Below, in pieces: positions 26,388 to 50,903 of a stretch of DNA of 64,000 nt. Source of the DNA: Kordiimonas sp. SCSIO 12610 (GTDB taxonomy: Bacteria > Pseudomonadota > Alphaproteobacteria > Sphingomonadales > Kordiimonadaceae); NCBI RefSeq assembly GCF_024398015.1, contig NZ_CP073747.1, positions 2,787,001 to 2,851,000 on the forward strand, read 5' to 3'. The notes below the pieces were generated by a model. The model worked only from the letters and a program-made list of their open reading frames with translations. It was not told where the DNA came from and made no database searches. Made by a program: the position numbers and the translations under genes. Each line of letters starts with the position of its first letter. Position 1 is the first letter of the stretch.

Positions 26388-26395
26388 CTGATGAG

Positions 26396-33334: not shown

Positions 33335-33377
33335 AAAGTGATGATTAGATCAATCTATAATAGTTTTTGAGGTGGTC

Positions 33378-34988
33378 ATGGTTAATCCTTTACGTGTTTT
33401 CATGCTATCAAGTTTAATAGCCATAACTACATCGTGTGCTCCTTCAAACGAGCATGAGAAACATCAACAGTTTGATACAGTTATCATTAATGGAACTGTT
33501 TTTTCTGGAAATCCTGATGATAACGGGCAAACCCTTGACATTGGTATCAAGGATGAACGGATTGTCTTCATTGGCGACTTAGGTAATACGAGCTACAAAA
33601 CCGAAAAAACAATCGATGCATCCGGTCATATTGTTTCACCCGGCTTTATAGACCCCCACACTCATGCGCTTGGTGATCTGCAAAACACCGACACAAGCAT
33701 AAATGTTAATTATTTAACACAAGGGGTTACAACTGTATTTGTTGGCAACGATGGAGGCGGCCCTGTTGATACCGAAGCTGTTATGGCCGATGTCAAAGCA
33801 AAATCACCAGGAACGAACGTTGCATTCTTCATCGGTCACGGCAAAGTCAGAAGCCATGTTGTCGGCGATGATGCACGAGCACCCAGCACTGATGAGCTTA
33901 AGCGAATGCGTGAACTTGTTCATGCTTCGATGGAAGCGGGCGCAGTTGGTTTGTCGTCAGGTCTTTTTTATGATCCCGGCAGTTTTTCAGAAACAGCAGA
34001 GGTCATCGCGCTAGCAGAAGAAATAGCGCCATATGGCGGCGTTTATGACACCCATCTGCGCGATGAAAGCGCTTATAACATTGGCCTTATCGCATCCGTA
34101 GAAGAAGCAATTGAAATCGGCCGCCAAAGCGGTGCAAAAGTCCATTTGGCCCACATTAAGGCGCTTGGAACGGTTGTTTGGGGACAAAGTGCAGACATTA
34201 TAAAGATCGTGGAAGCCGCACATAGTGAAGGCTTGAAAGTAACCGCTGATCAATATCCTTGGCGTGCATCAGGAACACGCATCTCAAATGCGCTGGTTCC
34301 CATATGGGCTAAAGACGGTGGTAACGATGCGATGATTGCGCGCCTTGCGGACCCCACACTCGCGGATCGCCTCAAGCAAGACATGGAAGAAGCCTTGAAA
34401 ATCCGCGGCGGACCAGATGCCTTGTTGGTTGTAGATAGCCCACTCGAAGACATTAAAGGTAAAACACTTCGGGAAATCGCGGAAGAGAGAAAACTGACTT
34501 TTGTTGATGCCGCTAAAGAAATCATAATTGCCGGCAACGCGCGTGTTGCATCATTCAATATGAATGACGATGATATAAGAGCGTTTATGGCTCAACCTTG
34601 GGTGATGACAAGCTCTGACGGCACAAATGGGCATCCCCGTAAATACGCCAGTTTCCCGCGAAAATATACGCAGTATATCAAAGATAATCAAAATCATGCA
34701 CCGGTAATGGATTTAGGGCGTTTCATTCATCAAAGCAGCGGGTTAACCGCAGAAACTTTTTCGCTTTGTGATCGTGGGTATATCCGGGAAGGCTACATTG
34801 CCGATATAACCATCTTTGACCCTGATCGTTATGCAGATAAGGCCGATTTTTATAACGCTACACTTCTCAGTGAGGGCGTAACCGACTTATTGGTCAATGG
34901 CGTTCAAATGATTGAAGCTGGTCGCTTAACGGGCAATCGCTCAGGCCAAGTTCTGAAACGCGACAATTGTAATTTCAAGAAACCATAA
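33378..34988 (+). CDS. N-acyl-D-amino-acid deacylase-like amidohydrolase, lipoprotein
   Basis: This 536-residue metal-dependent amidohydrolase belongs to the D-aminoacylase branch. The start at 33378 follows GAGG. The N-terminus is a lipoprotein-type signal ending at Cys20 (AITTSCAPS), so the enzyme is probably anchored in a membrane facing the periplasm. Metal-site motifs are SPGFIDPHTHA, GAVGLSSGLFYDPG, DTHLRDES, VHLAHIKALG and TSSDGTNGHPRKY. Family members deacylate N-acyl-D-amino acids, but dipeptidase or lactonase roles also occur in relatives. It is followed 39 bp later by an FG-GAP protein and probably shares its transcript. Confidence 0.87.
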   Translation: MVNPLRVFMLSSLIAITTSCAPSNEHEKHQQFDTVIINGTVFSGNPDDNGQTLDIGIKDERIVFIGDLGNTSYKTEKTIDASGHIVSPGFIDPHTHALGDLQNTDTSINVNYLTQGVTTVFVGNDGGGPVDTEAVMADVKAKSPGTNVAFFIGHGKVRSHVVGDDARAPSTDELKRMRELVHASMEAGAVGLSSGLFYDPGSFSETAEVIALAEEIAPYGGVYDTHLRDESAYNIGLIASVEEAIEIGRQSGAKVHLAHIKALGTVVWGQSADIIKIVEAAHSEGLKVTADQYPWRASGTRISNALVPIWAKDGGNDAMIARLADPTLADRLKQDMEEALKIRGGPDALLVVDSPLEDIKGKTLREIAEERKLTFVDAAKEIIIAGNARVASFNMNDDDIRAFMAQPWVMTSSDGTNGHPRKYASFPRKYTQYIKDNQNHAPVMDLGRFIHQSSGLTAETFSLCDRGYIREGYIADITIFDPDRYADKADFYNATLLSEGVTDLLVNGVQMIEAGRLTGNRSGQVLKRDNCNFKKP

Positions 34989-35027
34989 CGCTGACTAAGT
35001 TCACGACTTTGCAAAAGATACGTTGCT

Positions 35028-36539
35028 ATGAAAAAAATAAAGCACTCTAAAATTGTTAGGTCTTTTTCGATCGTGATCTCAGCTGGTTTGTTAGTCGGTT
35101 TTCAACCCGTACCGACCGATATTCCGCATTTCACGCAAGTCCAAGCTGAATTGTTTGCAGGCCCAGAAGCTCAGGCGGTTGTATGGGCAGATTTTGACAA
35201 TGACGGAGACCTGGATCTAACGGTAGGGTACAGACGTGGCGGCATCAAGTTTTTTGCCCAAACCAAAGGCACCTTCCAAGATGCAAAGGACATCATTGGT
35301 ATACCATCAGACATGACAGACTATAGGGCCCTATCGTGGGGCGACTATAATGCCGATGGTTACCCTGATTTGTATGTCGGATTTGGCCGAGACACAGGAC
35401 TAAAAAACCGCCTTTATCGAGGTAGTCAGAATGGTTTCGAGGAAGTTGCGGAGAATGTTGGTCTCGATGTTATCGGCACAACGCGGCAGAGTATCTGGAT
35501 AGACTATGACCAAGACGGTGATAGCGATCTGTTTGTAACGATGCGCGACCGCACCAGCAGACTGTATCAAAATAACAACGGCAAATTTATTGACATCAGC
35601 TCGTCTTCTGGCTTAAGCGACCCACGGCGCGGTGTTGGTGCGGTATGGTTCGACTTTGATCAGGACAGTGATTTAGATCTATATGCGCCGAACCAATCAG
35701 GAGACCGAGACGGCTTTTACCAAAACAATAATGGTCAGTTCATGGATATAGCTCAAACCTTGGGAATGGATAAAGCGCGACGCCCACTGAATGAAGGAAG
35801 CGTTGGCGCTACCTTATGTGATGTCAATGCTGATGGGCATATGGATATTTTCGTTCCTGTTTATGGCGCCGACATGCTTTATATAGCTGATGGTAAAGGC
35901 GGTTACAGAGAAGCTGCAAAAGATTGGGGCGTAAATGCCACTGACTTGGCCGTTAGCGCAGATTGCGGTGATTTTGACAATGATGGCCGCGATGATCTTT
36001 ACGTTGTCGCATATAAGCGCGGTGAAACACATGGTTATGACCACCTGTATCATAATCAGGGCGATCACTTTATCGACCTATTTCCCAAGGAACATGAGCT
36101 GTTTGACGGAGACCACGGTGTTCGTTTCAGTGATTACGACAACGACGGTGACCTTGATATAGCAATCAGCAATCGCAGCAAAGATGGCCGTGTTAGCTTA
36201 TGGAAGAATGAGCTCATCAATAGGGATACAATCAAGTCGGAAACTGGGGCACATTTTCTCAAAATTTTACTCCTTGATGCGGATGGTCGCTATACCCGTC
36301 AAGGTGATGAAATAAGAGTTTTCGATCACAAGACCAGTCGTGTAATTGGTACGAAAATTATTGATACCGGTGGGGGATATATCTCGCAGAATATGCAACC
36401 CGTTCACTTTGGCCTTGGAGAGGTAGAAAAGGTTGACGTTGAAGTAACATCCATTACCCAAGCGGGCAGGATCAAACAAAAAATTAGCAATGTGAATAGC
36501 GATCAAACCATCACTATTCGCCTTCAATCAAACAAATAA
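35028..36539 (+). CDS. Secreted FG-GAP/VCBS repeat protein with ASPIC/UnbV C-terminus
   Basis: This 503-residue protein has an N-terminal signal peptide (SFSIVISAGLLVGFQP). Seven calcium-loop repeats of the form D-x-[DN]-x-D-[GS]-x-x-D-[LI] (for example DFDNDGDLDL, DYNADGYPDL, DYDNDGDLDI) span residues about 55-385 and should build a beta-propeller. The C-terminal stretch (GGGYISQNMQPVHFGLG) matches the ASPIC/UnbV domain seen in CRTAC1-like proteins. No catalytic site is visible. It probably binds a substrate or surface in the periplasm or outside the cell. The gabT start is only 29 bp downstream. Confidence 0.87.
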   Translation: MKKIKHSKIVRSFSIVISAGLLVGFQPVPTDIPHFTQVQAELFAGPEAQAVVWADFDNDGDLDLTVGYRRGGIKFFAQTKGTFQDAKDIIGIPSDMTDYRALSWGDYNADGYPDLYVGFGRDTGLKNRLYRGSQNGFEEVAENVGLDVIGTTRQSIWIDYDQDGDSDLFVTMRDRTSRLYQNNNGKFIDISSSSGLSDPRRGVGAVWFDFDQDSDLDLYAPNQSGDRDGFYQNNNGQFMDIAQTLGMDKARRPLNEGSVGATLCDVNADGHMDIFVPVYGADMLYIADGKGGYREAAKDWGVNATDLAVSADCGDFDNDGRDDLYVVAYKRGETHGYDHLYHNQGDHFIDLFPKEHELFDGDHGVRFSDYDNDGDLDIAISNRSKDGRVSLWKNELINRDTIKSETGAHFLKILLLDADGRYTRQGDEIRVFDHKTSRVIGTKIIDTGGGYISQNMQPVHFGLGEVEKVDVEVTSITQAGRIKQKISNVNSDQTITIRLQSNK

Positions 36540-36568: not shown

Positions 36569-37858
36569 GTGGTTCAAACTAATAAAGATTTACATGAGCG
36601 TCGACTTGGCGCCCTCCCCTCAGGCCTTGCGTCTGTCGCGCCGTTTTACGTCGATCGGGCGCTAAACGCAGAATTATGGGATGTGGAAAATAACCGCTAT
36701 CTTGATTTTGCAACAGGAATTGCTGTTTGTAACACAGGTCACTGTCATCCGAAGGTTGTTGAGGCCGCAAAAAGCCAGCTAGACCGTGTTATGCACACAT
36801 GTGCGATGGTTGTTATGTATGATGAGTATGTAACACTCGCGGAAAAGATCAACAGCCTCGTTCCCATCAACAATGCTCGTTCTGTATTTTTTAATTCTGG
36901 TGCCGAAGCCGTTGAAAACGCCGTCCGTATCGCCCGTACAGCAACAAAACGACCCGGTATTATTACACTTCGTGGCGGATATCATGGCCGCACAGCGCTA
37001 ACAAGCACCATGAACGGCAAGGTAGCGCCATACCGCGCTGGCCATGTTGGAGGGCACGCACCTAACATCTATCATGCGCTTGCACCAATGCACCCACACA
37101 CATCAGAAGCAGAAGCCTTAAAATCGATAGAGCATGTTTTCAAGGTTGAAATTGAAGCTGATCAGGTTGCTGCTGTTGTTGTTGAACCAGTTATGGGCGA
37201 AGGCGGCTTCTATCCGCTATCACCGTCCTATATGCAGGCGCTCAGGTCTTTGACAGAAAAGCACGGTATTCTGTTGATTGCAGATGAAGTTCAAACAGGT
37301 TTTGGTCGCACAGGAAAATTATTTGCAACTGAGCATAGCGGTATCGAGCCAGATATTATGACCATTGCCAAAGCAATGGGCGGCGGTATGCCAATCTCTG
37401 GTGTTGTTGGCAAAGCCGAAATTATGGACAGTGTTAATCCTGGCGGCATTGGTGGCACCTACAGCGGCAACCCCGTTTCATGTGCAGCAGCTCTTGCTGC
37501 GATCGATGTTATCATCGAAGACAAACTTTCTGAACGCGCTGAGGCAATCGGCCAAGCTTTTGACGAATGTTTCACTAACCTTAAGGCAGAAAACCCCGAC
37601 CTTCCGATTGGCGCCGTTCGCGGCAACGGTGCAATGTGTGCCATTGAGTTTCTAAAAACCGAGGATGGTCAAACCATTCCAGATACGGAAATTGTTCCCA
37701 AGGTAATTGCTAATGCAAAAGAAGAAGGCTTGATCGTTCTAGCGTGCGGATATTACGGCAACTGTATCCGTGTCCTACCACCGCTAACTGTTCCTGACAA
37801 TCAACTTTCTGAAGGCCTAAACAAGCTAAAAGCGGCCATTCAAAAAGCAGCAAAATAA
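36569..37858 (+). CDS. gabT: 4-aminobutyrate aminotransferase
   Basis: This 429-residue class-III PLP aminotransferase moves the amino group of GABA, or a similar omega-amino acid, to 2-oxoglutarate, giving succinic semialdehyde. The GTG start at 36569 is chosen because AAAGGA lies six bases upstream. Key motifs are FNSGAEAVENAVRIAR, RGGYHGRTALTSTM, IADEVQTGFGRTGK and the PLP lysine in TIAKAMGGGMPIS. It opens the amine gene group that ends with the aldehyde dehydrogenase at 45775. By spacing it could also be read through from the FG-GAP gene. Confidence 0.92.
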   Translation: MVQTNKDLHERRLGALPSGLASVAPFYVDRALNAELWDVENNRYLDFATGIAVCNTGHCHPKVVEAAKSQLDRVMHTCAMVVMYDEYVTLAEKINSLVPINNARSVFFNSGAEAVENAVRIARTATKRPGIITLRGGYHGRTALTSTMNGKVAPYRAGHVGGHAPNIYHALAPMHPHTSEAEALKSIEHVFKVEIEADQVAAVVVEPVMGEGGFYPLSPSYMQALRSLTEKHGILLIADEVQTGFGRTGKLFATEHSGIEPDIMTIAKAMGGGMPISGVVGKAEIMDSVNPGGIGGTYSGNPVSCAAALAAIDVIIEDKLSERAEAIGQAFDECFTNLKAENPDLPIGAVRGNGAMCAIEFLKTEDGQTIPDTEIVPKVIANAKEEGLIVLACGYYGNCIRVLPPLTVPDNQLSEGLNKLKAAIQKAAK

Positions 37859-37874
37859 CATTGTAAACGAAGGT

Positions 37875-37910
37875 ACAGGCCTTAGTGTTCATCCGACATA
37901 GGGCCTGTTT
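37875..37910 (+). terminator. Weak stem-loop after gabT
   Basis: ACAGGCC and GGCCTGT form a 7-bp stem with a 20-nt loop, followed by only two further T residues after the stem. It lies between convergent genes and may act as a weak terminator. Confidence 0.4.
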
Positions 37911-37921
37911 CAAAGGGTACT

Positions 37922-38347
37922 TTACTTTAAACTGAACTTGGATTTTTCAATTGGCGCAAGCTCGTCTGTATGGCTGGCATCCAAATCCCCAGCGATTGCC
38001 GTCCCATCAGACGCTCCTTCATCAATTGTATGGATTGCCTCGAGGTCATTACGTGTCCACCAATACCAGAAGCCTTGACTACGGAGCCATTTTTCAGCCC
38101 GGTCCAGATCATTCCATTCACGGCCAAGGCCGCGTGCGCTATTTACTCTCGCTAATTGGCCATCAACGTATACCAAAATTCCCCACGCAAAAGGATGACG
38201 AGTTTGATCACCATACCCACCTCCCTTTTGTTGGCGATGTACGCGGTAGACCACAGGAAACTCACCTAACCTGCCTGCTTCACGCAAAAACGGCAAATCA
38301 GCCTGTGTAATGGTCATTGTTACACCCAAAGCTACATCTTGATCCAT
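37922..38347 (-). CDS. Hypothetical protein, Trp-rich, unrecognised
   Basis: This 141-residue soluble protein has a distinctive segment GFWYWWTRNDLEAI near residue 90 and an acidic C-terminus. Its PFAWGILVYVDGQ and ARGLGREWNDLDRAEKWLR segments look like a compact alpha/beta fold, but I do not recognise the family. The start at 38347 has GAGG rather far upstream; an internal ATG at codon 11 is possible. It is encoded opposite to the amine genes on both sides. Confidence 0.6.
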   Translation of the reverse strand: MDQDVALGVTMTITQADLPFLREAGRLGEFPVVYRVHRQQKGGGYGDQTRHPFAWGILVYVDGQLARVNSARGLGREWNDLDRAEKWLRSQGFWYWWTRNDLEAIHTIDEGASDGTAIAGDLDASHTDELAPIEKSKFSLK

Positions 38348-38440
38348 GATGTTGACAAATCCTCAAAAATATACTTATATGCACCAGAGTTTAAACCGTA
38401 GTCGATATTGACACCTAACAGCAAAAAGGAGCTGGATGCA

Positions 38441-39229
38441 ATGGCACGCACTACTCAATCGACCACTAAAGCGCAAGCAACAAAAACTGCGCCTAAAACT
38501 ACAGCAAAGAAAGCTGCGAAAAAACCTTCCAAAGTCGCTAAAAAACAGGCTGTGGAAAAAGCACCTGTTAAAAATGTGAAAGTTGAAAAGCCAGCTAAAG
38601 CAAAAGCCACACCGGCAAAAAAGAAGACTACTGCGAAACCTCGTTCAGTTAGCGCGGTTCCAAAAGGCTATCACACAGTTACACCTTCCCTTATTGTTCG
38701 CGGCGCAGCAGCAGCGATCGATTTTTACACGAATGTATTTGATGCCAAAGAACTCCGCCGTACATACGCATCCGATGGTATCACTATTGTAAACGCTGTC
38801 TTAAAAGTCGGTAATTCCAACATCCACCTGAGTGATGAAATGCCTGCTTATGGTGTATTATCACCAACCAGCATGGGGGCAGCAACAAGCGCTCTTCATG
38901 TATATCTGGAAGATGTTGATGCAGTATGGGCGCGTGCTGTGGATTCACTATCTACTGTTATTTTACCCCTTGAAAATGCTTATTGGGGTGAACGAAGCGG
39001 TAAATTTATTGACCCATTTGGTCAAGTTTGGACTGTTTCAAAGAAAATTGAAAACTTGTCTGACGGTGAAATAGCCGATCGTTATCAAGCGTTAACAGCC
39101 GAAGTTTCTGCTGAAGTAGAAGCAAATAGTGACAATGATGAAATCGTACCGATTGTCGATATTTCAGAAGCTATCGCTAAAGAGGCACAAAAAGCTGAAG
39201 CAGAGGCCCCTGCTACACTGGCAAGCTAG
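38441..39229 (+). CDS. VOC/glyoxalase-fold protein with histone H1-like Lys/Ala tail
   Basis: This 262-residue protein starts at the ATG at 38441, preceded by AAGGAG. Residues 1-66 hold 20 lysines with Ala, Thr and Pro and no hydrophobic core, like the tails of bacterial histone H1-like proteins. Residues about 78-200 form a VOC domain of the PhnB/glyoxalase type (TPSLIVRGAAAAIDFYTNVF, HVYLEDVDAVWARA, GKFIDPFGQVW). An acidic tail (SEAIAKEAQKAEAEA) ends the protein. The usual VOC metal ligands are not obvious. The tail could bind DNA, RNA or polyanions. It lies upstream of the nitrilase gene, from which it is separated by a terminator. Confidence 0.8.
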   Translation: MARTTQSTTKAQATKTAPKTTAKKAAKKPSKVAKKQAVEKAPVKNVKVEKPAKAKATPAKKKTTAKPRSVSAVPKGYHTVTPSLIVRGAAAAIDFYTNVFDAKELRRTYASDGITIVNAVLKVGNSNIHLSDEMPAYGVLSPTSMGAATSALHVYLEDVDAVWARAVDSLSTVILPLENAYWGERSGKFIDPFGQVWTVSKKIENLSDGEIADRYQALTAEVSAEVEANSDNDEIVPIVDISEAIAKEAQKAEAEAPATLAS

Positions 39230-39338
39230 TATAAGCATACTGTTTGCCCTTCAATGAGGGTTTACTCAAATATAGCGTCTCTATAAAAACTATAATCGAC
39301 CTATATCTAGATTGAATAACCTCATATAACTTTTGAAA

Positions 39339-39360
39339 GGGCGCGTCGGCGCCTTTTTTT
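39339..39360 (+). terminator. Intrinsic terminator after the VOC gene
   Basis: GGCGC-GTCG-GCGCC, with a G-T pair extending it, forms a tight stem followed by seven T residues. It separates the VOC gene from the nitrilase gene. It also shows that in-frame start codons before 39360 are unlikely for the nitrilase. Confidence 0.85.
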
Positions 39361-39395
39361 GTACTGTGCGTAATATTGAGAGAAAGATTTATTGT

Positions 39396-40292
39396 ATGCG
39401 ACCGTTTTCTATCGCCGGAATCCAGATGTATGTATCAGCAACAGAAGAGAATGTTGCGCATATGGAACAACGTGCCGAACTGGCCTTAACTAGATTTCCA
39501 TGGCTCGACATGCTGGTTTTTAGTGAGTTATCCCCGCACGGTCCCTTAATAAGCCATCACCCAAAATCATTAACTGATACTATTCAGCGCTTTCAGGATT
39601 TGGCCGCGAGGCTGAATGTTTGGCTAATACCCGGGTCAATGTTCGAGCACCGCGAAACAGGAATTTATAATACTTCCGTTGTTATAGACCCGCTCGGAAA
39701 TATTGTTGGCAAATATGACAAAATGTTCCCGTTCATGCCTTATGAAACAGGCGTAACCGGCGGTGACCAATTTTTGGTTTTTGACGTTCCTGAAATTGGT
39801 CGCTTTGGCCTTTCTATCTGTTACGATATCTGGTTCCCGGAAACCACCCGCACTTTGGCGGCCATGGGTGCCGAGGTACTGATCCACCCTGTATTAACAG
39901 GGACAACGGACAGAGATGTTGAACTGGCAATAGCGAGGGCAACAGCCGCTCAATTCCAATGTTATGTAGTTGACATTAACGGTATCGGCGCCGGCGGCAT
40001 TGGTCGCTCATGTATCGTAGGGCCAGGTGGTGACATGGTATACGAAGCGCGTGGAAACGAAGAAATTATCCCAATAGAAATTGATTTGGACCTGGTTCGC
40101 AGGCAACGGGCACAAGGCCAAAATGGACTGGGACAAGTGCTTAAAAGCTTCCGAGACCGGAACGTAGATTTCAAAGTTTATGATAATGCACAATTTGATC
40201 ATTCATATCACGATGGTTTAGGTGGCTTGAACATGCCTACTCGCAATATTCATACACCCGCGATACCTGGGCAATCCGCAAATGAAAATTAA
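39396..40292 (+). CDS. Carbon-nitrogen hydrolase (nitrilase superfamily amidase)
   Basis: This 298-residue amidase carries the superfamily's Glu-Lys-Cys triad, seen in LVFSELSPHG (Glu), KYDKMFPFMPYE (Lys) and LSICYDIWFPETTR (Cys). The ATG at 39396 is chosen because it follows the terminator at 39360 and an A/G-rich ribosome site. Relatives include N-carbamoylputrescine amidase, omega-amidase and aliphatic amidases. Directly before a decarboxylase and inside a GABA-type gene group, cleavage of an amide of a polyamine or omega-amino acid is plausible but not proven. Confidence 0.88.
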   Translation: MRPFSIAGIQMYVSATEENVAHMEQRAELALTRFPWLDMLVFSELSPHGPLISHHPKSLTDTIQRFQDLAARLNVWLIPGSMFEHRETGIYNTSVVIDPLGNIVGKYDKMFPFMPYETGVTGGDQFLVFDVPEIGRFGLSICYDIWFPETTRTLAAMGAEVLIHPVLTGTTDRDVELAIARATAAQFQCYVVDINGIGAGGIGRSCIVGPGGDMVYEARGNEEIIPIEIDLDLVRRQRAQGQNGLGQVLKSFRDRNVDFKVYDNAQFDHSYHDGLGGLNMPTRNIHTPAIPGQSANEN

Positions 40293-40376
40293 CAAATATT
40301 ATAAATTGCTTGGCAACATTTGAGGGAATGGTGTTAGGCTAAAATACGTTTAAAGTCAGATCGGGGAAACGGGGAT

Positions 40377-43166
40377 ATGACTTCTTCGGAAGAGAAACAA
40401 AACAAGCGCAAGCTCGTCAGTGAATATTATAACGCATCGCAATTCCGGATCGATACCTGGAATAAACTTAAATCCACGACACACCAATTAGCTGCCATGG
40501 ATACCCCCTCAGAAAAATTGAGGGAAAAAGTACGCCAACTCATTGAATATCTTGCGCCTGTAGAAATATATTGGGCTTTTCCTGGTCCACAAATTGTTGA
40601 AGAGTTAATCCGAGACGAAAAAGTCGCTGATTTTAAGATACTCGCCCGCAAGGTATCCCGCATTGCGACAGCACTTCTAAGCGGCGAATACCGACGAAAA
40701 CATATAAAACTGGATGCCTTAACCGATCAGGATATCGTTGAAAGCTCGTCAGAAGATCCGGGTGGTTATGCTGATTTCGAGCGAGCAAGGTCTAGACCAT
40801 ATTTTGAAGTTTTAATTGTTGATAGCTTCAATATAAACAAACGCGAAAGCCAGCGTGAAGCCTTACGGTCCATGAGGCGCGATGAAGACCGCTTCACTTA
40901 TTCACCCGTTTTTGTTCCGAGCCTGGATGACGCATTAATTGCAGTTTCCTTAAACCATAATATCCAATCGGTAATCATTCGATTTGGTTTTGATCTGCAT
41001 TCAGAAAACGATATGCCTGTTTTAAACAGATACATCAAACGGGCCCGCAGTGAAGATATTGAAGAAGCTGATCGAAGCGATTATGGCAGTATTCTCGCAG
41101 ATACGCTCGCTCATATTCGCCCAGAACTTGATTTATTTCTGGTGACAGATCAATCCGTTGAAGAGGTGGCGGGTACAGTTGGTAATACTTGCAGACGCGT
41201 CTTTTATGGTAGCGAAGACTTCTTCGAGTTACATTTGAATATCCTGCGTGGGATCGAAGACCGATACAAAACACCGTTTTTCACAGCCCTAAAAGACTAT
41301 TCCGCGAAACCCACGGGCGTGTTTCATGCCTTACCGATTTCTCGCGGAAAATCCATTATCAAGTCACACTGGATTCAGGACATGGGGGAATTCTACGGGC
41401 TAAATATTTTCCTCGCTGAAACATCATCCACCTCAGGTGGATTAGACTCGCTACTGGAACCTCATGGTCCAATTAAAGAAGCTCAGGAACTAACGGCACG
41501 TGCATTCGGCTCAAAGCAGACGTTTTTTGCAACGAATGGCACCTCAACCTGCAATAAGATTGTCGTCCAATCCCTTGTAAAAAATGGTGACATCGTCTTG
41601 ATAGATCGGGATTGTCATAAATCCCATCACTATGGAATGGTACTTGCTGGCGCGAATGTTGTTTATTTGGATAGCTATCCCTTAAGCGAATATTCCATGT
41701 ACGGCGCGGTTCCCCTGCGTTCAATCAAGGAAAAACTGCTTCTCTTGAAAAAGGAAGGCAAACTTGACCGTGTCAAAATGTTGCTCCTTACAAATTGTAC
41801 GTTTGACGGGATTGTTTATAACGTTCAGCGCGTAATGGAAGAATGCCTTGCGATCAAACCCGACCTTGTCTTTCTTTGGGATGAAGCCTGGTTTGGTTTC
41901 GCGCGCTTTGGTCCGACATACAGGCAACGTACCGCAATGTATTCCGCTGGCAGTTTAAGGCGCCGATTGAAATCTGACACGTATGCCGAGGAATACGCCG
42001 CATTCCAGGAAACAATGGCTACCATTGATGACGACGATATAGAGGCCATTCTTGATACACGATTGTACCCTGACCCAAATAAAGCAAGAATTAGGGTATA
42101 CGCGACGCAGTCGACACATAAAACCCTGACAGCGCTTCGGCAAGGTTCCATGATCCATATTTATGATCAGGACTATAAATCAAAAGTTGAAGAACCCTTC
42201 CATGAAGCCTTCATGACCCACACTTCAACATCGCCAAATTATCAGATACTTGCATCACTTGATGTTGGCAGACGACAAGTGGAACTTGAAGGTTTTGAGC
42301 TGGTTCAAAAACAAGTAGAGATGGCGATGAGGTTGCGTCAGGCAATCAGGAGCCATCCCAAACTTTCAAAATATTTCAGGGTGCTAACCGTTGGGGATAT
42401 GGTACCCTCAAAATATCGTCAGTCCGGCATTGAAAGCTATTATGAACCCGAACACGGCTGGCCAGATATATGGGATGCATGGGAAGGCGATGAATTTTGC
42501 CTGGATGCAACCCGTGTAACGCTTTTCGTAGGCGAAACAGGTATGGACGGAGACACGTTCAAGAATAAAATTCTGATGGATAAATACGGAATTCAGATCA
42601 ATAAGACATCGCGAAATACCGTACTTTTCATGACCAATATCGGCACGACGCGAAGTTCCGTTGCTTATCTTATTGAAGTTCTTGTCAAGGTTGCTAACGA
42701 GATTGAATTACGCCTTGAAGATATGAGCCCTGCTGAAACAAAAATCCATCAATATAACGTAAAATCAATCGTGGAGGATTTACCCCCTCTTCCAGATTTC
42801 TCATGTTTTCATGAAGCGTTTAGAGAGGATGCCGCAGGAGAGGTCGCCGAGGGCGATTCCAGATCAGCATTCTTTTTATCTTATGACGCCGATAACTGCG
42901 AATATATACGGCTGGATAGCCCAGACCTTGATAAAGCGATCAAGGAAGGTCGTGACGTAGTTTCATCATCTTTTGTTATTCCTTATCCTCCAGGTTTTCC
43001 TGTTTTGGTGCCTGGTCAAGTTGTGAGTATGGAAATAATTGAATTTCTTCGCAAATTGGACGTGAAAGAGATTCATGGATATCGCCCTGAACTTGGCTTG
43101 CGAATTTTTACGCAAGCTGCACTTGAACAGGAAACCCGTAAGCGTGGAAGTGGAGCATCCTTATGA
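40377..43166 (+). CDS. Orn/Lys/Arg-type PLP decarboxylase, long form
   Basis: This 929-residue fold-I PLP enzyme resembles the inducible ornithine/lysine/arginine decarboxylases. The core shows FFATNGTSTCNKIV, LIDRDCHKSHHYG, the Asp/Ala pair in FLWDEAWFGFARFG and the PLP lysine Lys582 in ATQSTHKT. A receiver-like or wing domain occupies roughly residues 1-300. The C-terminal domain ends with VSSSFVIPYPPGFPVLVPGQ, the family's closing motif. It is about 170-200 residues longer than the usual 715-755. The extra length lies in the N-terminal region and around residues 540-570. It overlaps the ATP-grasp gene by four bases (ATGA). The amino-acid specificity cannot be assigned. Confidence 0.88.
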   Translation: MTSSEEKQNKRKLVSEYYNASQFRIDTWNKLKSTTHQLAAMDTPSEKLREKVRQLIEYLAPVEIYWAFPGPQIVEELIRDEKVADFKILARKVSRIATALLSGEYRRKHIKLDALTDQDIVESSSEDPGGYADFERARSRPYFEVLIVDSFNINKRESQREALRSMRRDEDRFTYSPVFVPSLDDALIAVSLNHNIQSVIIRFGFDLHSENDMPVLNRYIKRARSEDIEEADRSDYGSILADTLAHIRPELDLFLVTDQSVEEVAGTVGNTCRRVFYGSEDFFELHLNILRGIEDRYKTPFFTALKDYSAKPTGVFHALPISRGKSIIKSHWIQDMGEFYGLNIFLAETSSTSGGLDSLLEPHGPIKEAQELTARAFGSKQTFFATNGTSTCNKIVVQSLVKNGDIVLIDRDCHKSHHYGMVLAGANVVYLDSYPLSEYSMYGAVPLRSIKEKLLLLKKEGKLDRVKMLLLTNCTFDGIVYNVQRVMEECLAIKPDLVFLWDEAWFGFARFGPTYRQRTAMYSAGSLRRRLKSDTYAEEYAAFQETMATIDDDDIEAILDTRLYPDPNKARIRVYATQSTHKTLTALRQGSMIHIYDQDYKSKVEEPFHEAFMTHTSTSPNYQILASLDVGRRQVELEGFELVQKQVEMAMRLRQAIRSHPKLSKYFRVLTVGDMVPSKYRQSGIESYYEPEHGWPDIWDAWEGDEFCLDATRVTLFVGETGMDGDTFKNKILMDKYGIQINKTSRNTVLFMTNIGTTRSSVAYLIEVLVKVANEIELRLEDMSPAETKIHQYNVKSIVEDLPPLPDFSCFHEAFREDAAGEVAEGDSRSAFFLSYDADNCEYIRLDSPDLDKAIKEGRDVVSSSFVIPYPPGFPVLVPGQVVSMEIIEFLRKLDVKEIHGYRPELGLRIFTQAALEQETRKRGSGASL

Positions 43167-44683
43167 GTAAGAAAGCTGTTAAATCTGTTGCTAAAAAAGC
43201 GAAAAGCAAAAATACCAACAGTAAAAAGAAGACTATTAATACACTTGATACCATGTCGGATATTCGACGGTATTTTCATAGAAACGAACAGCCAATATTT
43301 TTTATAAGTGCTACCAATTTTAACTTATTGGGTATTGATGAATGGTGCCGTAACTTCAAATTTATCAGCTATATTGATTGCTTTGATGGTCGGCATCCAA
43401 ACGTGTTTGTACCAACTGAAACCGAACACCCTGAATTTGAGAGCATTGAAGATATCAATGCTTACTTACTTGAACACAAGGAAGTTGTTGATCTGCTGAA
43501 ATCTAGCGGAAAACGCCCTAAAGTAGTTTTCTTAATGTTTGACGAACGCGTTGAAAAAATATGTGAGGAATTAGGTGTTGATGTCTGGTTCCCGAAAGCA
43601 GCACTTCGAGAACAAATCGATCACAAGATCGAAACTGTCCGTATTGGAAACGCAGCAGGCGTTCCAAGTGTACCAAACATCCTCAGCGAAGTGAAAAGCT
43701 GGCAGCATTTGCAAGAAGTATCAAAGTCCTTAGGTGATGATTTAGTGCTTCAATCTGCTTTTGGTGATAGCGGTCATACCACCTTCTTTATCAAGAACGA
43801 GCGTGATTTCAAACGTTACGAGCAGAAAATTGTTGGCCAAGGCGAAATCAAAATCATGAAACGCATCCGCAATCGTGGTGCCGCCGTCGAAGCATGCGCG
43901 ACCAAAGAAGGAACCGTCGTTGGTCCATTAATGACAGAACTCGTTGGCTTTAAACAGCTTACGCCATACCGCGGCGGTTGGTGCGGCAATGAAATTTTTG
44001 CCGACGCTTTCGATGAAGATACACGCCAAAAAACAAAGAAATACACCGAGCAGTTTGGCGATCAATTAGTGAAAGAAGGCTACCGTGGGTATTTTGAGGT
44101 TGATTATCTAATCGATATCGATGACGGCGAAGTCTACCTGGGTGAATGTAACCCAAGGGTGACCGGTGCAAGCTCCATGACCAATCATGCTGCCTTTGCC
44201 CATGCAGATGCCCCTCTATTTCTATTCCATCTACTTGAATTCTCAGGCGTTCCCTTTGAATTAGATGTGGATAAGCTGAATGCACGATGGTCAAATGCAG
44301 ACAATATTGATGAATGGTGTCAAATGGTCATCAAGCACACTGATGATACCGTTGATATCCTTTCAGAAGCACCTGAAACCGGTATTTGGCGCATGTTACC
44401 TGATGGCACTGTGGAGTATGATCGTTTTGACTATCACCGCCGCGCTGTTAACAGTGAAAATGAAGCCTTTTTCTTACGTATCCTGAAACCAGGCGATTAT
44501 CGCTATGAAGGTGCAGACCTTGGTATTCTGGTTACCCGTGGTCGGGCAATGGGCGAAGGCTTCCGCCTGCGCAAGCGCTCGAAACAATGGGTAGACGGCA
44601 TTAAAGGTAAATTTAAAGCGAACCCATTACCAACGGCGGAAGCATTGCCCATCAGTAATGAACCTGCTTTTAAAATCATGTAA
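43163..44683 (+). CDS. ATP-grasp ligase (biotin-carboxylase-like) with Lys-rich N-terminus
   Basis: This 506-residue protein contains an ATP-grasp fold (residues about 145-370: LVLQSAFGDSGHTTFF, IMKRIRNRGAAVEACA, GYFEVDYLIDIDDGEVYLGECNPRVTG). The last motif carries the Glu/Asn magnesium ligands. The first 24 residues hold 10 lysines, echoing the tail of the VOC protein nearby. ATP-grasp enzymes join a carboxylate to an amine or thiol through an acyl phosphate. Its start overlaps the decarboxylase stop, so the two are coupled and probably act on one substrate. It lacks the biotin-carboxylase partner domains, so carboxylation is unlikely. Confidence 0.82.
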   Translation: MSKKAVKSVAKKAKSKNTNSKKKTINTLDTMSDIRRYFHRNEQPIFFISATNFNLLGIDEWCRNFKFISYIDCFDGRHPNVFVPTETEHPEFESIEDINAYLLEHKEVVDLLKSSGKRPKVVFLMFDERVEKICEELGVDVWFPKAALREQIDHKIETVRIGNAAGVPSVPNILSEVKSWQHLQEVSKSLGDDLVLQSAFGDSGHTTFFIKNERDFKRYEQKIVGQGEIKIMKRIRNRGAAVEACATKEGTVVGPLMTELVGFKQLTPYRGGWCGNEIFADAFDEDTRQKTKKYTEQFGDQLVKEGYRGYFEVDYLIDIDDGEVYLGECNPRVTGASSMTNHAAFAHADAPLFLFHLLEFSGVPFELDVDKLNARWSNADNIDEWCQMVIKHTDDTVDILSEAPETGIWRMLPDGTVEYDRFDYHRRAVNSENEAFFLRILKPGDYRYEGADLGILVTRGRAMGEGFRLRKRSKQWVDGIKGKFKANPLPTAEALPISNEPAFKIM

Positions 44684-44688
44684 TTTCT

Positions 44689-44706
44689 CCCTGCCGACAG
44701 GCAGGG
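44689..44706. other. GC-rich stem-loop between ATP-grasp and C45 genes
   Basis: CCCTGCC-GACA-GGCAGGG forms a perfect 7-bp stem with a 4-nt loop in the 46-bp gap. No T run follows, so it is more likely an RNA stability or processing element than a terminator. It sits 23 bp before the start of the next gene. Confidence 0.5.
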
Positions 44707-44729
44707 CGTTACTCTGATAAGAATAATAA

Positions 44730-45743
44730 ATGGACTTAATTTTTGAAAAGGTCTGCGAGGCAGATGCTGGCCCATTGTGGCAAGCACATTTTGCACGCCT
44801 ATGGCCGGCCTATAAAAAATGGTTTCTCAATGAAGGCATTGGTGCGCGGCAGACCTATTTAGCAGGAGTTCGCGCACTTAAGGCCTACATGCCTGAATTA
44901 ATGCCAACCTATGACAGGCTTTGCGAACTTGCCGGCGGCGGTGACCTCGCTGCCCGTTTTCTTAGCTTCTATCGACCGCCATTGTATTTATCCGGTTGCT
45001 CACAAGCGATCTGGCTAGGCGAAGAACCCATGCTGGTTCGAAACTATGATTATGCCCCTGAATTATCGGACGGCATTATCTGGGACAGTTGCTGGAACGG
45101 CAAACGGGTTACAGCTACATCAGATGGGATGTGGGGTGTCGTTGACGGCATGAATGATAGCGGCCTTGCTGTGTCGCTCACGTTTGGTGGTCGCCGCGTT
45201 GTTGGCGAAGGTTTCGGGGTGCCCCTAATTCTGCGATATATTCTCGAATTTTGCGAAACTGCGAAAGAGGCTGTGTCCGTTCTGAAGCGTGTGCCATGCC
45301 ATATGGCATACAATGTGACAGTTGTTGACGAAAACGGACATCATGCAACAGCCTATCTTTCCCCTGATAGGGATATCGTCGTATCTGATACGCGGGTTGC
45401 CACCAATCATCAGGAATATGTCGAATGGCACGGTCATGCCAGAGCAACCGCCACAGTAGAGCGGGAGCGTTTTCTGCTTCAGCGACTGACAATGCATGAT
45501 GAACCCGCAGAAAAATTCATTCGGGCTTTTCTAAAGCCACCTTTATATTCAACAAATTTTTCAAAGGGATTTGGAACACTTTATACGGCTGTGTATTGGC
45601 CCAAACAAAAAAAATCGGAAATTAGATGGCCCGGAGAGGTCTGGCGCCACTCTTTTAAGAAACCAAATGCATCAAAACGGCAAATTCGCTATCCAGACAC
45701 GACAAAATATTCTATTCACGGGTTTAATGACCCACAGGAATGA
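44730..45743 (+). CDS. C45-type Ntn hydrolase (acyl-CoA:6-APA acyltransferase-like)
   Basis: This 337-residue protein belongs to the penicillin-acyltransferase/C45 peptidase group. The predicted self-cleavage site is Gly89-Cys90 in YLSGCSQAIW, and Cys90 would become the N-terminal nucleophile. The MLVRNYDYAPEL segment and NDSGLAVSLTFGGR are typical of the family. Members cleave or form linear amide bonds, for example in acylated amino acids. Between an ATP-grasp ligase and an aldehyde dehydrogenase, it may remove a protecting acyl or aminoacyl group. It is cytosolic: no signal peptide is seen. Confidence 0.85.
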   Translation: MDLIFEKVCEADAGPLWQAHFARLWPAYKKWFLNEGIGARQTYLAGVRALKAYMPELMPTYDRLCELAGGGDLAARFLSFYRPPLYLSGCSQAIWLGEEPMLVRNYDYAPELSDGIIWDSCWNGKRVTATSDGMWGVVDGMNDSGLAVSLTFGGRRVVGEGFGVPLILRYILEFCETAKEAVSVLKRVPCHMAYNVTVVDENGHHATAYLSPDRDIVVSDTRVATNHQEYVEWHGHARATATVERERFLLQRLTMHDEPAEKFIRAFLKPPLYSTNFSKGFGTLYTAVYWPKQKKSEIRWPGEVWRHSFKKPNASKRQIRYPDTTKYSIHGFNDPQE

Positions 45744-45774
45744 ACCTTGTCATAACTACTGAAAAGAGAACAAG

Positions 45775-47226
45775 ATGAACAAAGATTATTCTTTATTAAA
45801 AACCGATGCCTATATTGATGGGGCTTGGGTAAAAGGCGAAGCGTCAAAAAGCTTTGAGGTTTTAAATCCGGCAACCGGTGAACTTATTGCAAATGTCGCG
45901 GACCTCGACCGCAACGATACAGCAAAAGCGATTGAAGCTGCAAATGCTGCCTTCCCGGCCTGGCGCGCTAAAACAGCCAAGGAACGTGCTGATCTTTTGA
46001 AGGCATTATTTGTCGCCATGAAGGAAAACGCGGAAGAGTTAGCGCAAATCCTAACGGCTGAGTGCGGCAAGCCGATTGCCGAGGCACGCGGTGAAGTTCT
46101 CTATGGAGCATCTTTCCTCGAATGGTTCGCGGAGGAAGGCCGCCGCTCATACGGTGATGTTATTCCAACACCAGCAGGCAACAAACGTATTGTTACAACG
46201 AAAGAACCTATCGGTGTATGCGGAATGATTACACCTTGGAATTTTCCGAATGCAATGATCACCCGCAAAATAGGCCCTGCCTTAGCCGCTGGGTGTACTG
46301 TCGTTTTAAAACCAGCTGCTGAAACACCCTTAAGCGCAACTGCCATCGCGGAACTTGCTGAGCGGGTTGGTTTTCCAAAGGGTGTTTTCAATATTGTCAC
46401 TTCATCCGATGGGCCAGGTGTCGGGCTTGAGATTTGCGAAAGCCCGATTGTTCGCAAGGTTTCATTCACTGGGTCGACAAACGTTGGGCGTATCCTTATG
46501 CGTCAAAGCGCTGACACTATTAAAAAGCTCTCTCTGGAGCTTGGCGGGAACGCACCCTTTATCGTGTTTGATGACGCCGATTTAGACGCAGCCGTTGCAG
46601 GCGCGATGGCGTCCAAGTACCGCAATTCCGGTCAGACATGCGTGTGTGCAAACCGATTCCTTGTTCAAGATGGAATATATGATGCGTTTGCAGAAAAATT
46701 TGCTGCCGCAGTTGAAGGCCTCAAAGTTGGTAACGGTGCTGACGACGACGTAACACAAGGACCGTTGATTAGTCAGACTGGCCTCGAGAAAGTAAAAGGC
46801 CATGTCGCTGATGCGGTTGATAAAGGGGCTAAATTGATCACAGGTGGTCATCCACACGCGTTAGGGCAGACATTTTTTGAGCCAACAATCCTTGGTGACG
46901 TCACGGCAGAGATGGCTGTTGCAAAAGAAGAAATCTTTGGCCCTGTTGCTCCCCTATTCCGCTTCAAAACCGAAGAAGAAGCAATCCAGATGGCAAACGA
47001 TACCGAATTTGGCCTTGCAAGTTATTTCTACAGCCGCGACATTGGCCGCGTATGGCGAGTGGCTGAAGCCCTTGAATATGGAATGGTCGGTATTAACGAG
47101 GGGATTCTCTCGACTGAAGTTGCACCATTTGGTGGTGTAAAATCATCAGGCCTTGGCCGCGAGGGTGCTCGTGAAGGCTTAAGCGACTATCTGGAAACAA
47201 AATATCTCTGTATGGGTGGAATATAA
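45775..47226 (+). CDS. gabD: NAD(P)-dependent succinate-semialdehyde dehydrogenase family
   Basis: This 483-residue aldehyde dehydrogenase is close to GabD. The catalytic cysteine is in NSGQTCVCANRF, the general base Glu in LELGGNAPF and the Asn in PWNFPNAM. The C-terminal EVAPFGGVKSSGLGREG is typical of succinate-semialdehyde and related omega-aldehyde dehydrogenases. It follows the C45 gene by 31 bp and has an A/G-rich ribosome site. With gabT at the other end of the group, it would take GABA-derived semialdehyde to succinate. A related aldehyde such as an aminobutanal is also possible. Confidence 0.92.
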   Translation: MNKDYSLLKTDAYIDGAWVKGEASKSFEVLNPATGELIANVADLDRNDTAKAIEAANAAFPAWRAKTAKERADLLKALFVAMKENAEELAQILTAECGKPIAEARGEVLYGASFLEWFAEEGRRSYGDVIPTPAGNKRIVTTKEPIGVCGMITPWNFPNAMITRKIGPALAAGCTVVLKPAAETPLSATAIAELAERVGFPKGVFNIVTSSDGPGVGLEICESPIVRKVSFTGSTNVGRILMRQSADTIKKLSLELGGNAPFIVFDDADLDAAVAGAMASKYRNSGQTCVCANRFLVQDGIYDAFAEKFAAAVEGLKVGNGADDDVTQGPLISQTGLEKVKGHVADAVDKGAKLITGGHPHALGQTFFEPTILGDVTAEMAVAKEEIFGPVAPLFRFKTEEEAIQMANDTEFGLASYFYSRDIGRVWRVAEALEYGMVGINEGILSTEVAPFGGVKSSGLGREGAREGLSDYLETKYLCMGGI

Positions 47227-47248: not shown

Positions 47249-47287
47249 AAAAAGGGCGTTATTCCGATAGAGAGTAACGCCCTTTTT
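47249..47287. terminator. Strong bidirectional intrinsic terminator
   Basis: A 13-bp perfect stem (AAAAAGGGCGTTA / TAACGCCCTTTTT) with a 13-nt loop lies between the convergent aldehyde dehydrogenase and M1/permease genes. The A run and T run allow it to work in both directions. Confidence 0.92.
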
Positions 47288-50892: not shown

Positions 50893-50903
50893 AGTCACCC
50901 CCA

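What the first reader, a model, noticed from the sequence alone, without database searches (positions are those of the whole stretch)
36569..47226. Amine gene group: GABA enzymes flanking a decarboxylase, ATP-grasp ligase, nitrilase and C45 hydrolase
gabT and a gabD-type dehydrogenase bracket a nitrilase-family amidase, an oversized Orn/Lys/Arg decarboxylase, an ATP-grasp ligase coupled to it by ATGA, and a C45 Ntn hydrolase. In the known Puu route, putrescine is gamma-glutamylated by a ligase, oxidised and then deglutamylated by a hydrolase before GabT/GabD. Here an ATP-grasp ligase and a C45 hydrolase could play the ligase and deprotecting roles with unrelated folds, while the decarboxylase makes the amine. 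No amine oxidase is visible. The specific chemistry is inference; the gene order and motifs are seen directly. This is my best candidate for an undescribed system.
Basis: partly seen in the sequence, partly recalled or inferred. Interest (0 to 1): 0.75.

Follow-up and report, generated by a model that had tools for sequence, protein, structure and literature searches.

The report
Mobile four-enzyme amino-acid catabolism cassette
Four neighbouring bacterial genes, for a decarboxylase, an ATP-using ligase and two amide-cutting enzymes, form an apparently undescribed unit that seems to move between bacteria and plugs into pathways that break down ectoine, arginine and GABA-like compounds; its decarboxylase probably acts on glutamate or aspartate rather than making polyamines.

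Summary
In 58 loci with full flanks, DEC and C45 accompany ATPG in 58 and NIT in 57. Of 398 sampled genomes, all 11 with ATPG hold DEC and C45 within about 5 kb. gabT and gabD are local partners: in 80 loci, gabT-like hits of any strength in 34, SSADH in 3. The cassette recurs in several gene orders: inside an ectoine-degradation operon (15 of 17 loci of one family), in an arginine operon, beside ureohydrolase-gabT-SSADH, and beside TAXI-TRAP transporters. DEC is full-length kin of M. tuberculosis Rv2531c, whose activity is unknown. Catalytic residues are kept, but lysine decarboxylase's Glu526 is Asn and two Arg appear in 98 of 98 rows. Its sister clade without ATPG is followed by an AspT-type antiporter gene in 10 of 10 loci. 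I read DEC as a Glu/Asp decarboxylase, so the polyamine reading is unlikely. Best guess: DEC makes GABA or beta-alanine, ATPG forms an amide with an amine, C45 and NIT release it, as in insect Black-Ebony-Tan. Substrates are inferred.

The parts
36569..37858 (+). gabT-like class III aminotransferase (P0004); local partner, not core
   Evidence: Aminotran_3 418.7 bits; TIGR00700 497.8 against cut-off 506.65; only close copy in the genome, other matches 31-36% identity
37922..38347 (-). 141-aa gene of unknown function (P0005), minus strand, kept near the cassette in a subset of loci
   Evidence: found in 16 of 80 loci and within 9 kb in 17 of 116
38408..39229 (+). glyoxalase-domain protein with Ala/Lys-rich N-terminal tail (P0006)
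   Evidence: PF00903 41.8 bits; found in 16 of 80 loci
39396..40292 (+). NIT: nitrilase-superfamily C-N hydrolase (P0007), cassette member
   Evidence: PF00795 120.9 bits; Glu, Lys and Cys of the presumed triad invariant in 97 of 97 four-gene loci, 95 of them distinct
40377..43166 (+). DEC: Orn/Lys/Arg-fold PLP decarboxylase of the Rv2531c family (P0008), cassette core
   Evidence: OKR_DC_1 250.6 bits; chain 9n0n_A, the Rv2531c protein, E 8e-264 over residues 17-924
43163..44683 (+). ATPG: ATP-grasp ligase, PRK06524 (P0009), cassette core; overlaps DEC by ATGA
   Evidence: NF005096 759.2 bits, cut-off 684; the 50 listed Foldseek matches are ATP-grasp enzymes, query TM 0.33-0.44 (model pLDDT 66)
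44730..45743 (+). C45: Ntn hydrolase/acyltransferase (P0010), cassette core; nucleophile Cys90
   Evidence: NF040521 181.1 bits, PF03417 111.3 bits; best fold match isopenicillin N acyltransferase 2x1c (model pLDDT 88)
45775..47226 (+). SSADH/GabD-type dehydrogenase (P0011), last gene of the window operon; local partner
   Evidence: TIGR01780 705.6 bits, cut-off 646; 31 bp after C45
47249..47287 (+). terminator-like hairpin, 16 pairs, closing the operon
   Evidence: consensus scan only

Best explanation
NIT-DEC-ATPG-C45 is an accessory, apparently horizontally mobile module of amino-acid and osmolyte catabolism. DEC removes CO2 from an acidic amino acid (glutamate more likely than aspartate), giving the omega-amino acid GABA or beta-alanine. 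ATPG spends ATP to form an amide between that acid, or its parent, and an amine or amino acid supplied by the host pathway. C45, a self-cleaving Ntn enzyme, and NIT break the amide again. The freed GABA-like product enters neighbouring aminotransferase and semialdehyde-dehydrogenase steps (GabT/GabD here, DoeD/DoeC in ectoine operons). Shown: the conserved gene set, its contexts, intact catalytic residues, and the loss of the Lys/Arg/Orn side-chain signature in DEC. Inferred: an acidic DEC substrate (moderately likely), a ligase activity of the amide-forming type (likely), and the identity and order of the amide steps (weak).
For: Conserved set: in the 58 of 80 loci with full flanks DEC 58/58, C45 58/58, NIT 57/58, same strand; all 11 ATPG genomes of 398 sampled hold DEC and C45 within about 5 kb. 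The set survives reordering: of 116 loci, NIT-DEC-ATPG-C45 in 80, NIT-ATPG-C45-DEC in 17, plus a C45-NIT unit divergent from DEC-ATPG, DEC-ATPG-C45-NIT, and DEC in trans. DEC pocket: catalytic His, Asp and Lys kept; in 98 of 98 rows Asn at the CadA Glu526 position and Arg at CadA positions 373 and 530. LdcI and AdiA are reported to line the active-site channel with negative residues (PMC4832331, passage). The sister DEC clade without ATPG (10 rows, support 100/100) is followed, on the same strand and within 500 bp, by a 563-571-aa antiporter-like gene in 10 of 10 loci; five AspT-superfamily genes adjoining or near DEC were scanned in L106, L107 and L110-L112 as direct neighbours, all with the AspT/YidE/YbjL domain above cut-off, and L092, L106-L108 are annotated aspT. 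No AspT hit in any of 116 ATPG loci within the flanks held. Contexts pointing to C4 amino acids: ectoine operon doeABX-[cassette]-doeC in 15 of 17 family-f51 loci; arginine-type operon; ureohydrolase-gabT-SSADH divergent from the cassette in L034. ATPG keeps E-x-N-P-R but not the Q-V-E-H that follows it in pyruvate carboxylase. Tan, an amide hydrolase of the same Pfam family as this C45, undoes Ebony's ligation of the beta-alanine made by Black (PMC10194958, PMC5085778, passages).
Against: No substrate has been tested. AdiA itself has Thr at the Glu526 column, so losing that Glu does not by itself exclude a basic substrate. Rv2531c has Ile where the cassette DECs have the second Arg, so that Arg is not a feature of the whole family. 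In the sister clade the antiporters of L110-L112 score 371-379 bits, under the aspartate-alanine cut-off of 547, so their substrate is open. In Shinella the cassette genes sit in an arginine operon without DEC beside them, and in XES5 DEC lies near arginase and hutH, which could hint at a basic substrate. The ectoine operon supplies diaminobutyrate, a basic amino acid. The scheme does not explain why two amide hydrolases are kept. The ATPG model is of low confidence.
Confidence: 0.33

Rival explanations
1. One reading: a Puu-like polyamine route. DEC makes a diamine (for example 1,3-diaminopropane from DAB, or putrescine or agmatine), ATPG glutamylates it, an aminotransferase and aldehyde dehydrogenase oxidise it, and C45 or NIT removes the glutamyl group.
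For: Ligase, aminotransferase, aldehyde dehydrogenase and hydrolase are all at hand in some loci; ectoine operons supply DAB; agmatinase-family genes lie near in 5 of 116 loci.
Against: DEC pocket carries Asn and two Arg; sister clade goes with AspT-type antiporters; the M. tuberculosis relative is reported as not crucial for growth on arginine (PMC4569260, passage); aminotransferase and SSADH are not conserved members.
Confidence: 0.15
2. Biosynthesis of a small amide product (dipeptide osmolyte, signal or nitrogen store) from the DEC product, with C45 acting as an acyltransferase as in isopenicillin N acyltransferase, and catabolic context reflecting co-regulation only.
For: C45 folds best onto an acyltransferase; decarboxylase plus ATP-grasp precede amide products in other pathways (recalled: methanofuran, butirosin); minimal sets DEC-ATPG-C45 exist without recognisable catabolic neighbours (L102, L103).
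Against: Position inside the ectoine-degradation operon in 15 of 17 loci of one family and inside an arginine-type operon, and import systems alongside in 24 of 116 loci (TAXI), point to breakdown.
Confidence: 0.2
3. GABA-shunt or acid-stress module: DEC is a glutamate decarboxylase feeding GabT/GabD, NIT and C45 free glutamate from amides, and ATPG serves a separate, regulatory or salvage role.
For: gabT and SSADH nearby in the window and in L034; sister DECs look like an acid-resistance system with AspT-type antiporters and, in some, AspD and HdeA/B.
Against: Leaves the most tightly conserved partner, ATPG, unexplained; no AspT hit in any of 116 ATPG loci.
Confidence: 0.14
4. Ectoine-type branch: the cassette handles acetyl-diaminobutyrate or DAB formed by DoeA/DoeB (for example gamma-acetyl-DAB), and equivalent C4 diamino compounds elsewhere.
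For: Operon position between doeX and doeC in one family; EutB-like and cyclodeaminase-like genes upstream of the cassette in L047 too.
Against: The window's own genome has no DoeA above cut-off; outside family f51 no ATPG locus showed a DoeA hit within 9 kb.
Confidence: 0.1

Closest known systems
Rv2531c-type amino acid decarboxylase (PDB 9n0n, 9n0o, 9n0p)
   Same: Full-length homology to DEC, about 900-residue overlap; same oversized architecture and catalytic motifs; Asn at the Glu526 position and the first Arg (RQAS) are shared.
   Different: Rv2531c has Ile where cassette DECs have the second Arg; its activity is reported as not clarified (PMC12910592, passage). Whether mycobacteria carry ATPG or C45 beside it was not tested here.
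Insect Black-Ebony-Tan (aspartate decarboxylase, beta-alanyl-dopamine synthetase, its hydrolase)
   Same: Same three-step logic is possible: acidic amino-acid decarboxylase, ATP-using amine ligase, hydrolase of the PF03417 family (P0010 here; Tan by PMC10194958 and PMC5085778, passages).
   Different: Ebony is NRPS-like and Black is of another decarboxylase family (both recalled), so only the hydrolase family is shared; substrates in bacteria unknown; NIT has no counterpart.
Puu pathway (PuuA-PuuB-PuuC-PuuD)
   Same: Ligase, oxidation and hydrolysis logic; GABA as an exit.
   Different: Only one protein of the glutamine synthetase fold in the genome (PF00120), presumably GlnA; different folds; decarboxylase pocket not suited to basic amino acids.
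Ectoine degradation operon doeABX-doeCD-eutBC
   Same: Hosts the cassette in one family; in L098 DoeA and DoeB pass NCBIfam cut-offs and EutB passes by PRK07476; in L116 EutC passes by PRK08291. The names DoeX, DoeC and DoeD are mine, from position and recall; no doe model named them.
   Different: The cassette is an accessory there (40 of 151 genomes of that family have ATPG) and occurs elsewhere without doe genes.
Butirosin BtrJ/BtrK and methanofuran MfnD (recalled only)
   Same: ATP-grasp ligase working with a PLP decarboxylase on glutamate chemistry.
   Different: Other decarboxylase folds, carrier protein in butirosin, biosynthetic setting.

Membership tests
Orn/Lys/Arg decarboxylase (OKR_DC_1) | Domain match above curated cut-off | tested here: met
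   250.6 bits against 27
Orn/Lys/Arg decarboxylase (OKR_DC_1) | Catalytic His, Asp and PLP Lys | tested here: met
   CadA His245, Asp330 and Lys367 columns invariant in 98 of 98 rows; HKS, DEAW, STHK invariant in 97 of 97 four-gene loci
Orn/Lys/Arg decarboxylase (OKR_DC_1) | Acidic residue for the basic side chain (LdcI Glu526, AdiA Asp at column 530; roles recalled) | tested here: not met
   Asn at column 526 and Arg at column 530 in 98 of 98 rows; CadA, AdiA, SpeF have E, T, E and P, D, L there
Rv2531c family | Full-length collinear homology | tested here: met
   E 8e-264, residues 17-924 on 19-909
Biotin carboxylase | Q-V-E-H bicarbonate/biotin motif after E-x-N-P-R (role recalled) | tested here: not met
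   VTGASS in place of IQVEHT in the alignment to pyruvate carboxylase 2qf7
PRK06524 / NF005096 | Score above cut-off | tested here: met
   759.2 against 684; the name 'biotin carboxylase' is annotation, not a tested function
Peptidase family C45 / PF03417 | Profile match and invariant nucleophile Cys | tested here: met
   181.1 against 85 and 111.3 against 23.2 bits; Cys90 in 97 of 97 loci, preceding residue Gly in 85 of 97
Peptidase family C45 / PF03417 | Self-cleavage before the Cys | not testable with these tools
   needs protein
Nitrilase superfamily | Glu-Lys-Cys triad | tested here: met
   invariant in 97 of 97 loci
GABA shunt (GabT, GabD) | GabT and SSADH model scores | tested here: inconclusive
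   SSADH TIGR01780 705.6 against 646.35 met; GABAtrnsam TIGR00700 497.8 against 506.65 just missed
Puu pathway | PuuA-type ligase of the glutamine synthetase fold | tested here: not met
   one PF00120 hit in the genome
Puu pathway | gamma-glutamyl amine intermediates | not testable with these tools
   needs metabolite data
Insect-like Black-Ebony-Tan cycle | Hydrolase of the PF03417 family | tested here: met
   for P0010; Tan membership from PMC10194958 (passage)
Insect-like Black-Ebony-Tan cycle | Aspartate (acidic) decarboxylation | tested here: inconclusive
   pocket and AspT association suggest it; no assay
Insect-like Black-Ebony-Tan cycle | beta-alanyl-amine ligation | not testable with these tools
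   needs assay

The most novel reading that the evidence does not exclude
A bacterial counterpart of the insect Black-Ebony-Tan cycle: an acidic amino-acid decarboxylase on the Orn/Lys/Arg fold makes beta-alanine or GABA, a stand-alone ATP-grasp enzyme attaches it to a reactive amine of the catabolic pathway, and a C45 enzyme takes it off again, as a reversible mask that bacteria exchange as a gene cassette. It could also give the Rv2531c family an acidic substrate.
Probability: 0.18. Interest if true: 0.82.

Novelty: new variant of a known kind. Interest (0 to 1): 0.6.

Why it matters
It links four enzymes of known folds and unknown substrates into one testable pathway, and gives a concrete prediction (Glu or Asp) for a decarboxylase family whose structure was solved without an activity. 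It adds an unexplained set of steps to the ectoine-degradation operon of many bacteria of one family. If the conjugation cycle is real, it would be a new way to mask amines in bacteria, with largely nonhomologous parts that parallel an insect system.

Tried and rejected
Considered and set aside. (1) DEC as arginine, lysine or ornithine decarboxylase: catalytic residues fit, side-chain residues do not. (2) ATPG as a biotin-type carboxylase: the Q-V-E-H stretch is absent and I saw no carboxyltransferase or biotin carrier gene among the window neighbours that I read (14-55 kb). (3) DEC as the cell's source of beta-alanine for pantothenate: the genome has a PanD. (4) An ectoine role in this genome: no DoeA over cut-off. 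(5) The PF00491 gene inside the window (26504-27313) as a guanidinobutyrase linked to the cassette: it lies at the end of what I read as a hut operon, so it is probably HutG. (6) Stand-alone C45 relatives as a clue to substrate: five stretches fetched, neighbours uninformative to me. (7) Rfam over 36-48 kb: no match. (8) Literature: searches returned no paper; two searches listed three papers that look unrelated (listings only). The Rv2531c structure paper itself is not held and was not read; papers cited were seen as passages only.

Weak points of method. The 80 loci are the best 80 of 291 matches, so they lean to close relatives. Of the 116 ATPG loci, 4 duplicate another locus (same contig reached twice), leaving 112 distinct; of the 97 four-gene loci 95 are distinct. 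Only 88 of the 116 have at least 8 kb on both sides of ATPG, so absences near ATPG are partly a matter of short flanks. Mirror-tree correlations (r 0.88-0.96 over 97 loci) have no control for shared species history. My ORF caller misses genes in GC-rich loci; presence counts therefore rest on tblastn, not on ORFs. Eight of the 13 loci of the DEC-ATPG-C45 type are cut by a contig end. For the AspT link my first tblastn kept only the best hit per locus, 2.7-3.2 kb away at 33-40% identity in L110-L114; one search then found the directly adjoining antiporter-like gene, of which L107 and L110-L112 were scanned and L106; those of L092, L108 and L113-L115 were not scanned as adjoining genes. L111-L114 come from one genus. 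Rows dropped before counts: L093 was left out of the residue count and restored; 22 of the 80 loci were not counted as evaluable for adjacency.

Full report
What is there. The window lies in a 3.50-Mb single-contig genome. Among the loci fetched, the cassette proteins are closest to Kordiimonas aquimaris (ATPG 88%; DEC 80% and a clade with support 100/99). NIT, DEC, ATPG, C45 and SSADH run together with small gaps (84 bp, -4 bp, 46 bp, 31 bp from the coordinates), the ATGA overlap is real, and a terminator-like hairpin follows at 47249-47287.

What is conserved. I took the ATP-grasp protein as the query, as it looked the most specific, and fetched its best 80 of 291 relatives from named genomes. 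tblastn of the window proteins gave C45 in 80 of 80, DEC in 79, NIT in 72, a gabT-like protein of any strength in 34, and SSADH in 3. Of the 58 loci with at least 5.5 kb on both sides, DEC and C45 were within 6.5 kb on the same strand in 58 of 58 and NIT in 57 of 58. A less biased check used 398 genomes drawn evenly from the phylum: ATPG in 11, DEC in 17, C45 relatives (E up to 1e-10) in 15. All 11 ATPG genomes have both DEC and C45 within about 5 kb; 6 genomes have DEC without ATPG and 4 have a C45 relative without ATPG (one genome, G111, is in both lists). Of the 10 of these 11 that are not the window, NIT is near in 8. So the core is DEC-ATPG-C45 with NIT usually present. In the class sample ATPG was in 9 of 337. 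It is rare and patchy: neither of the 2 same-family genomes has it.

It is reshuffled and probably moves. Eight arrangements were seen over 116 loci, 112 of them distinct: NIT-DEC-ATPG-C45 in 80, NIT-ATPG-C45-DEC in 17, DEC-ATPG-C45 in 13 (8 of these are cut by a contig end), ATPG-C45 with NIT on the other strand in 2, and four single cases, two of them (L083, L127) near contig ends. Pairwise distances of the four proteins correlate at r 0.88-0.96 over 97 loci (no control for species history). In the DEC tree a Granulosicoccus sequence sits among alphaproteobacterial ones (fork 90/89, below the starred level), which suggests transfer without proving it.

Where it plugs in. (a) In one family of another class (f51; I take it for Halomonadaceae by recall) ATPG is in 40 of 151 genomes. 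Of 17 loci fetched from it (2, 15), 15 have DoeA, DoeB and DoeX within 3 kb of ATPG and 16 have a DoeC-like gene on the other side. In L098, DoeA and DoeB pass their NCBIfam cut-offs and EutB passes by PRK07476; EutC passes by PRK08291 in L116. The names DoeX, DoeC and DoeD are mine, from position and recall; the DoeC-like protein scores under the SSADH cut-off (608 against 646) and the DoeD-like one matches an unnamed aminotransferase subfamily. L120 has the DoeC and EutB side only, with DoeX 8.4 kb away; L127 has only ATPG and C45 at a contig end. (b) In Shinella and XES5 plasmids, ATPG and C45 lie between an aldehyde dehydrogenase and a D-amino-acid dehydrogenase in an operon annotated with agmatinase, 5-guanidino-2-oxopentanoate decarboxylase, alanine racemase and RidA, with NIT (57-59% identity) nearby on the other strand. 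DEC is not beside them; in XES5 it is elsewhere on the plasmid. (c) In L034 a ureohydrolase 69% identical to Shinella's, a gabT-like gene and an SSADH run divergently from the cassette. (d) In 24 of 116 loci a TAXI substrate-binding protein, in 23 a TRAP permease, and in 19 a UspA-like gene lie within 9 kb (23, 22 and 18 of 112 distinct loci). (e) Rhizobium symbiotic plasmids carry DEC-ATPG-C45, in one case with DEC split and C45 cut short near transposases. The common thread I see is catabolism that passes through C4 amino acids such as GABA and diaminobutyrate and yields glutamate or aspartate. This is inference from gene content.

The decarboxylase. DEC aligns over its full length with M. 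tuberculosis Rv2531c. A 2026 paper says its activity was not clarified (PMC12910592, passage), and the gene is reported as not crucial for growth of that organism on arginine (PMC4569260, passage). Against E. coli CadA, AdiA and SpeF the catalytic residues are kept (98 of 98 rows). The column of CadA Glu526 (Thr in AdiA, Glu in SpeF) is Asn, and the columns of CadA Ser373 and Pro530 (Asp in AdiA, Leu in SpeF) are Arg, in 98 of 98 rows (first seen). The roles of Glu526 and the AdiA Asp are recalled; the negative patch lining the LdcI/AdiA channel is from PMC4832331 (passage). Rv2531c keeps the Asn and the first Arg but has Ile at the second.

The sister clade. Ten DECs without ATPG (6 from the phylum sample, 4 from plasmids) form one clade (100/100). 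In all 10 the next gene on the same strand, within 500 bp, encodes a 563-571-aa antiporter-like protein. Those of L107 and L110-L112 and of L106 have the AspT/YidE/YbjL domain above cut-off; L106 and L107 pass the aspartate-alanine antiporter model (692 and 558 against 547), L110-L112 do not (371-379), so their substrate is open. A second AspT-like gene lies nearby in L107, L108 and L110-L114, and some loci add aspartate 4-decarboxylase or HdeA/HdeB. No AspT hit was found in the 116 ATPG loci within the flanks held. A decarboxylase paired with an acidic-amino-acid exchanger is what a glutamate or aspartate acid-resistance system would look like. This is the second reason to read DEC as acidic. 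The E. coli outgroup branches are long, so the root is unsure.

The other enzymes. ATPG: its nearest solved relatives by sequence are biotin-dependent carboxylases at E about 1e-6, but the alignment shows VTGASS where pyruvate carboxylase has IQVEHT; E-x-N-P-R is invariant (97 of 97). I read it as a carboxylate-amine ligase. Its model is of low confidence (pLDDT 66), and the 50 listed Foldseek matches have query TM-scores of 0.33-0.44. C45: invariant Cys90 and NYD, model pLDDT 88, best fold match isopenicillin N acyltransferase. NIT: Glu, Lys and Cys invariant in 97 of 97; no NCBIfam model reached its cut-off. All four thus look like active enzymes.

Mechanism. The simplest scheme that uses all parts is an amide cycle around an omega-amino acid: DEC makes GABA (or beta-alanine), ATPG joins it or its parent acid to an amine, C45 and NIT release it, and the local aminotransferase and semialdehyde dehydrogenase take the product on. 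In insects Black makes beta-alanine from aspartate, Ebony ligates it to dopamine, and Tan, of the same PF03417 family as this C45, hydrolyses the amide (PMC5085778 and PMC10194958, passages). I put about one in three on the scheme in general and less than one in five on the insect parallel. Substrates, direction and the need for two hydrolases are unresolved.

Own genome. It has a PanD, a single PF00120 protein, no DoeA over cut-off, two PF00282 decarboxylases far below the cut-offs of their best NCBIfam models, one DEC, and no other aminotransferase match above 36% identity to P0004. The norspermidine-type genes at 52719-55117 score below their cut-offs and are separated from the cassette by genes on the other strand.

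Novelty. I found no description of the set: searches returned no paper and only listings that look unrelated. The library is limited to open licences, so this is weak evidence of absence. The enzymes are of known folds; the combination appears undescribed.

Noticed in passing
L092, L106, L107, L108, L110-L115: A second DEC system without ATPG: DEC followed directly by an AspT-superfamily antiporter gene in 10 of 10 loci, sometimes with a second antiporter, aspartate 4-decarboxylase, porin or HdeA/HdeB; looks like an undescribed acidic-amino-acid acid-resistance module.
   Followed up: partly
window 21178-27322: What reads as a histidine-utilisation cluster (GntR-type regulator, HutI, HutH, HutU, HutG-like; my reading, only the PF00491 match is from a call) about 10 kb upstream; in XES5 a hutH also lies near DEC (L109).
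   Followed up: no
window 28493-29845, minus strand: A decarboxylase of the ornithine/diaminopimelate type (my reading of the sequence, not scanned), between the hut genes and the cassette.
   Followed up: no
window 52719-55117: Carboxynorspermidine synthase-like and NspC-like genes overlapping by 4 bp; both score below the NCBIfam cut-offs.
   Followed up: no
P0006 and P0009 N-termini; L077 and L131: Ala/Lys-rich, histone-H1-like tails on the glyoxalase protein and on ATPG, much longer in the ATPG open frames of L077 and L131.
   Followed up: no
window 47293-50904, minus strand: A 1203-aa protein that reads as an ABC-type membrane permease fused to an M1-like peptidase domain (my reading, not scanned).
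   Followed up: no
window 33372-36539: An N-acyl-amino-acid deacylase-like amidohydrolase followed by an FG-GAP repeat-like protein directly upstream of gabT (my reading, not scanned).
   Followed up: no
L089, L090, L093: Copies on rhizobial symbiotic-type plasmids; in L089 DEC is split and C45 truncated beside transposases, near nifA and fix genes; L093 is a lone DEC among insertion sequences.
   Followed up: partly
L047: A record titled Oceanobacillus (Bacillota) that carries an alphaproteobacterial-type cassette with EutB-like and cyclodeaminase-like genes upstream; possibly a mislabelled or contaminated assembly.
   Followed up: no
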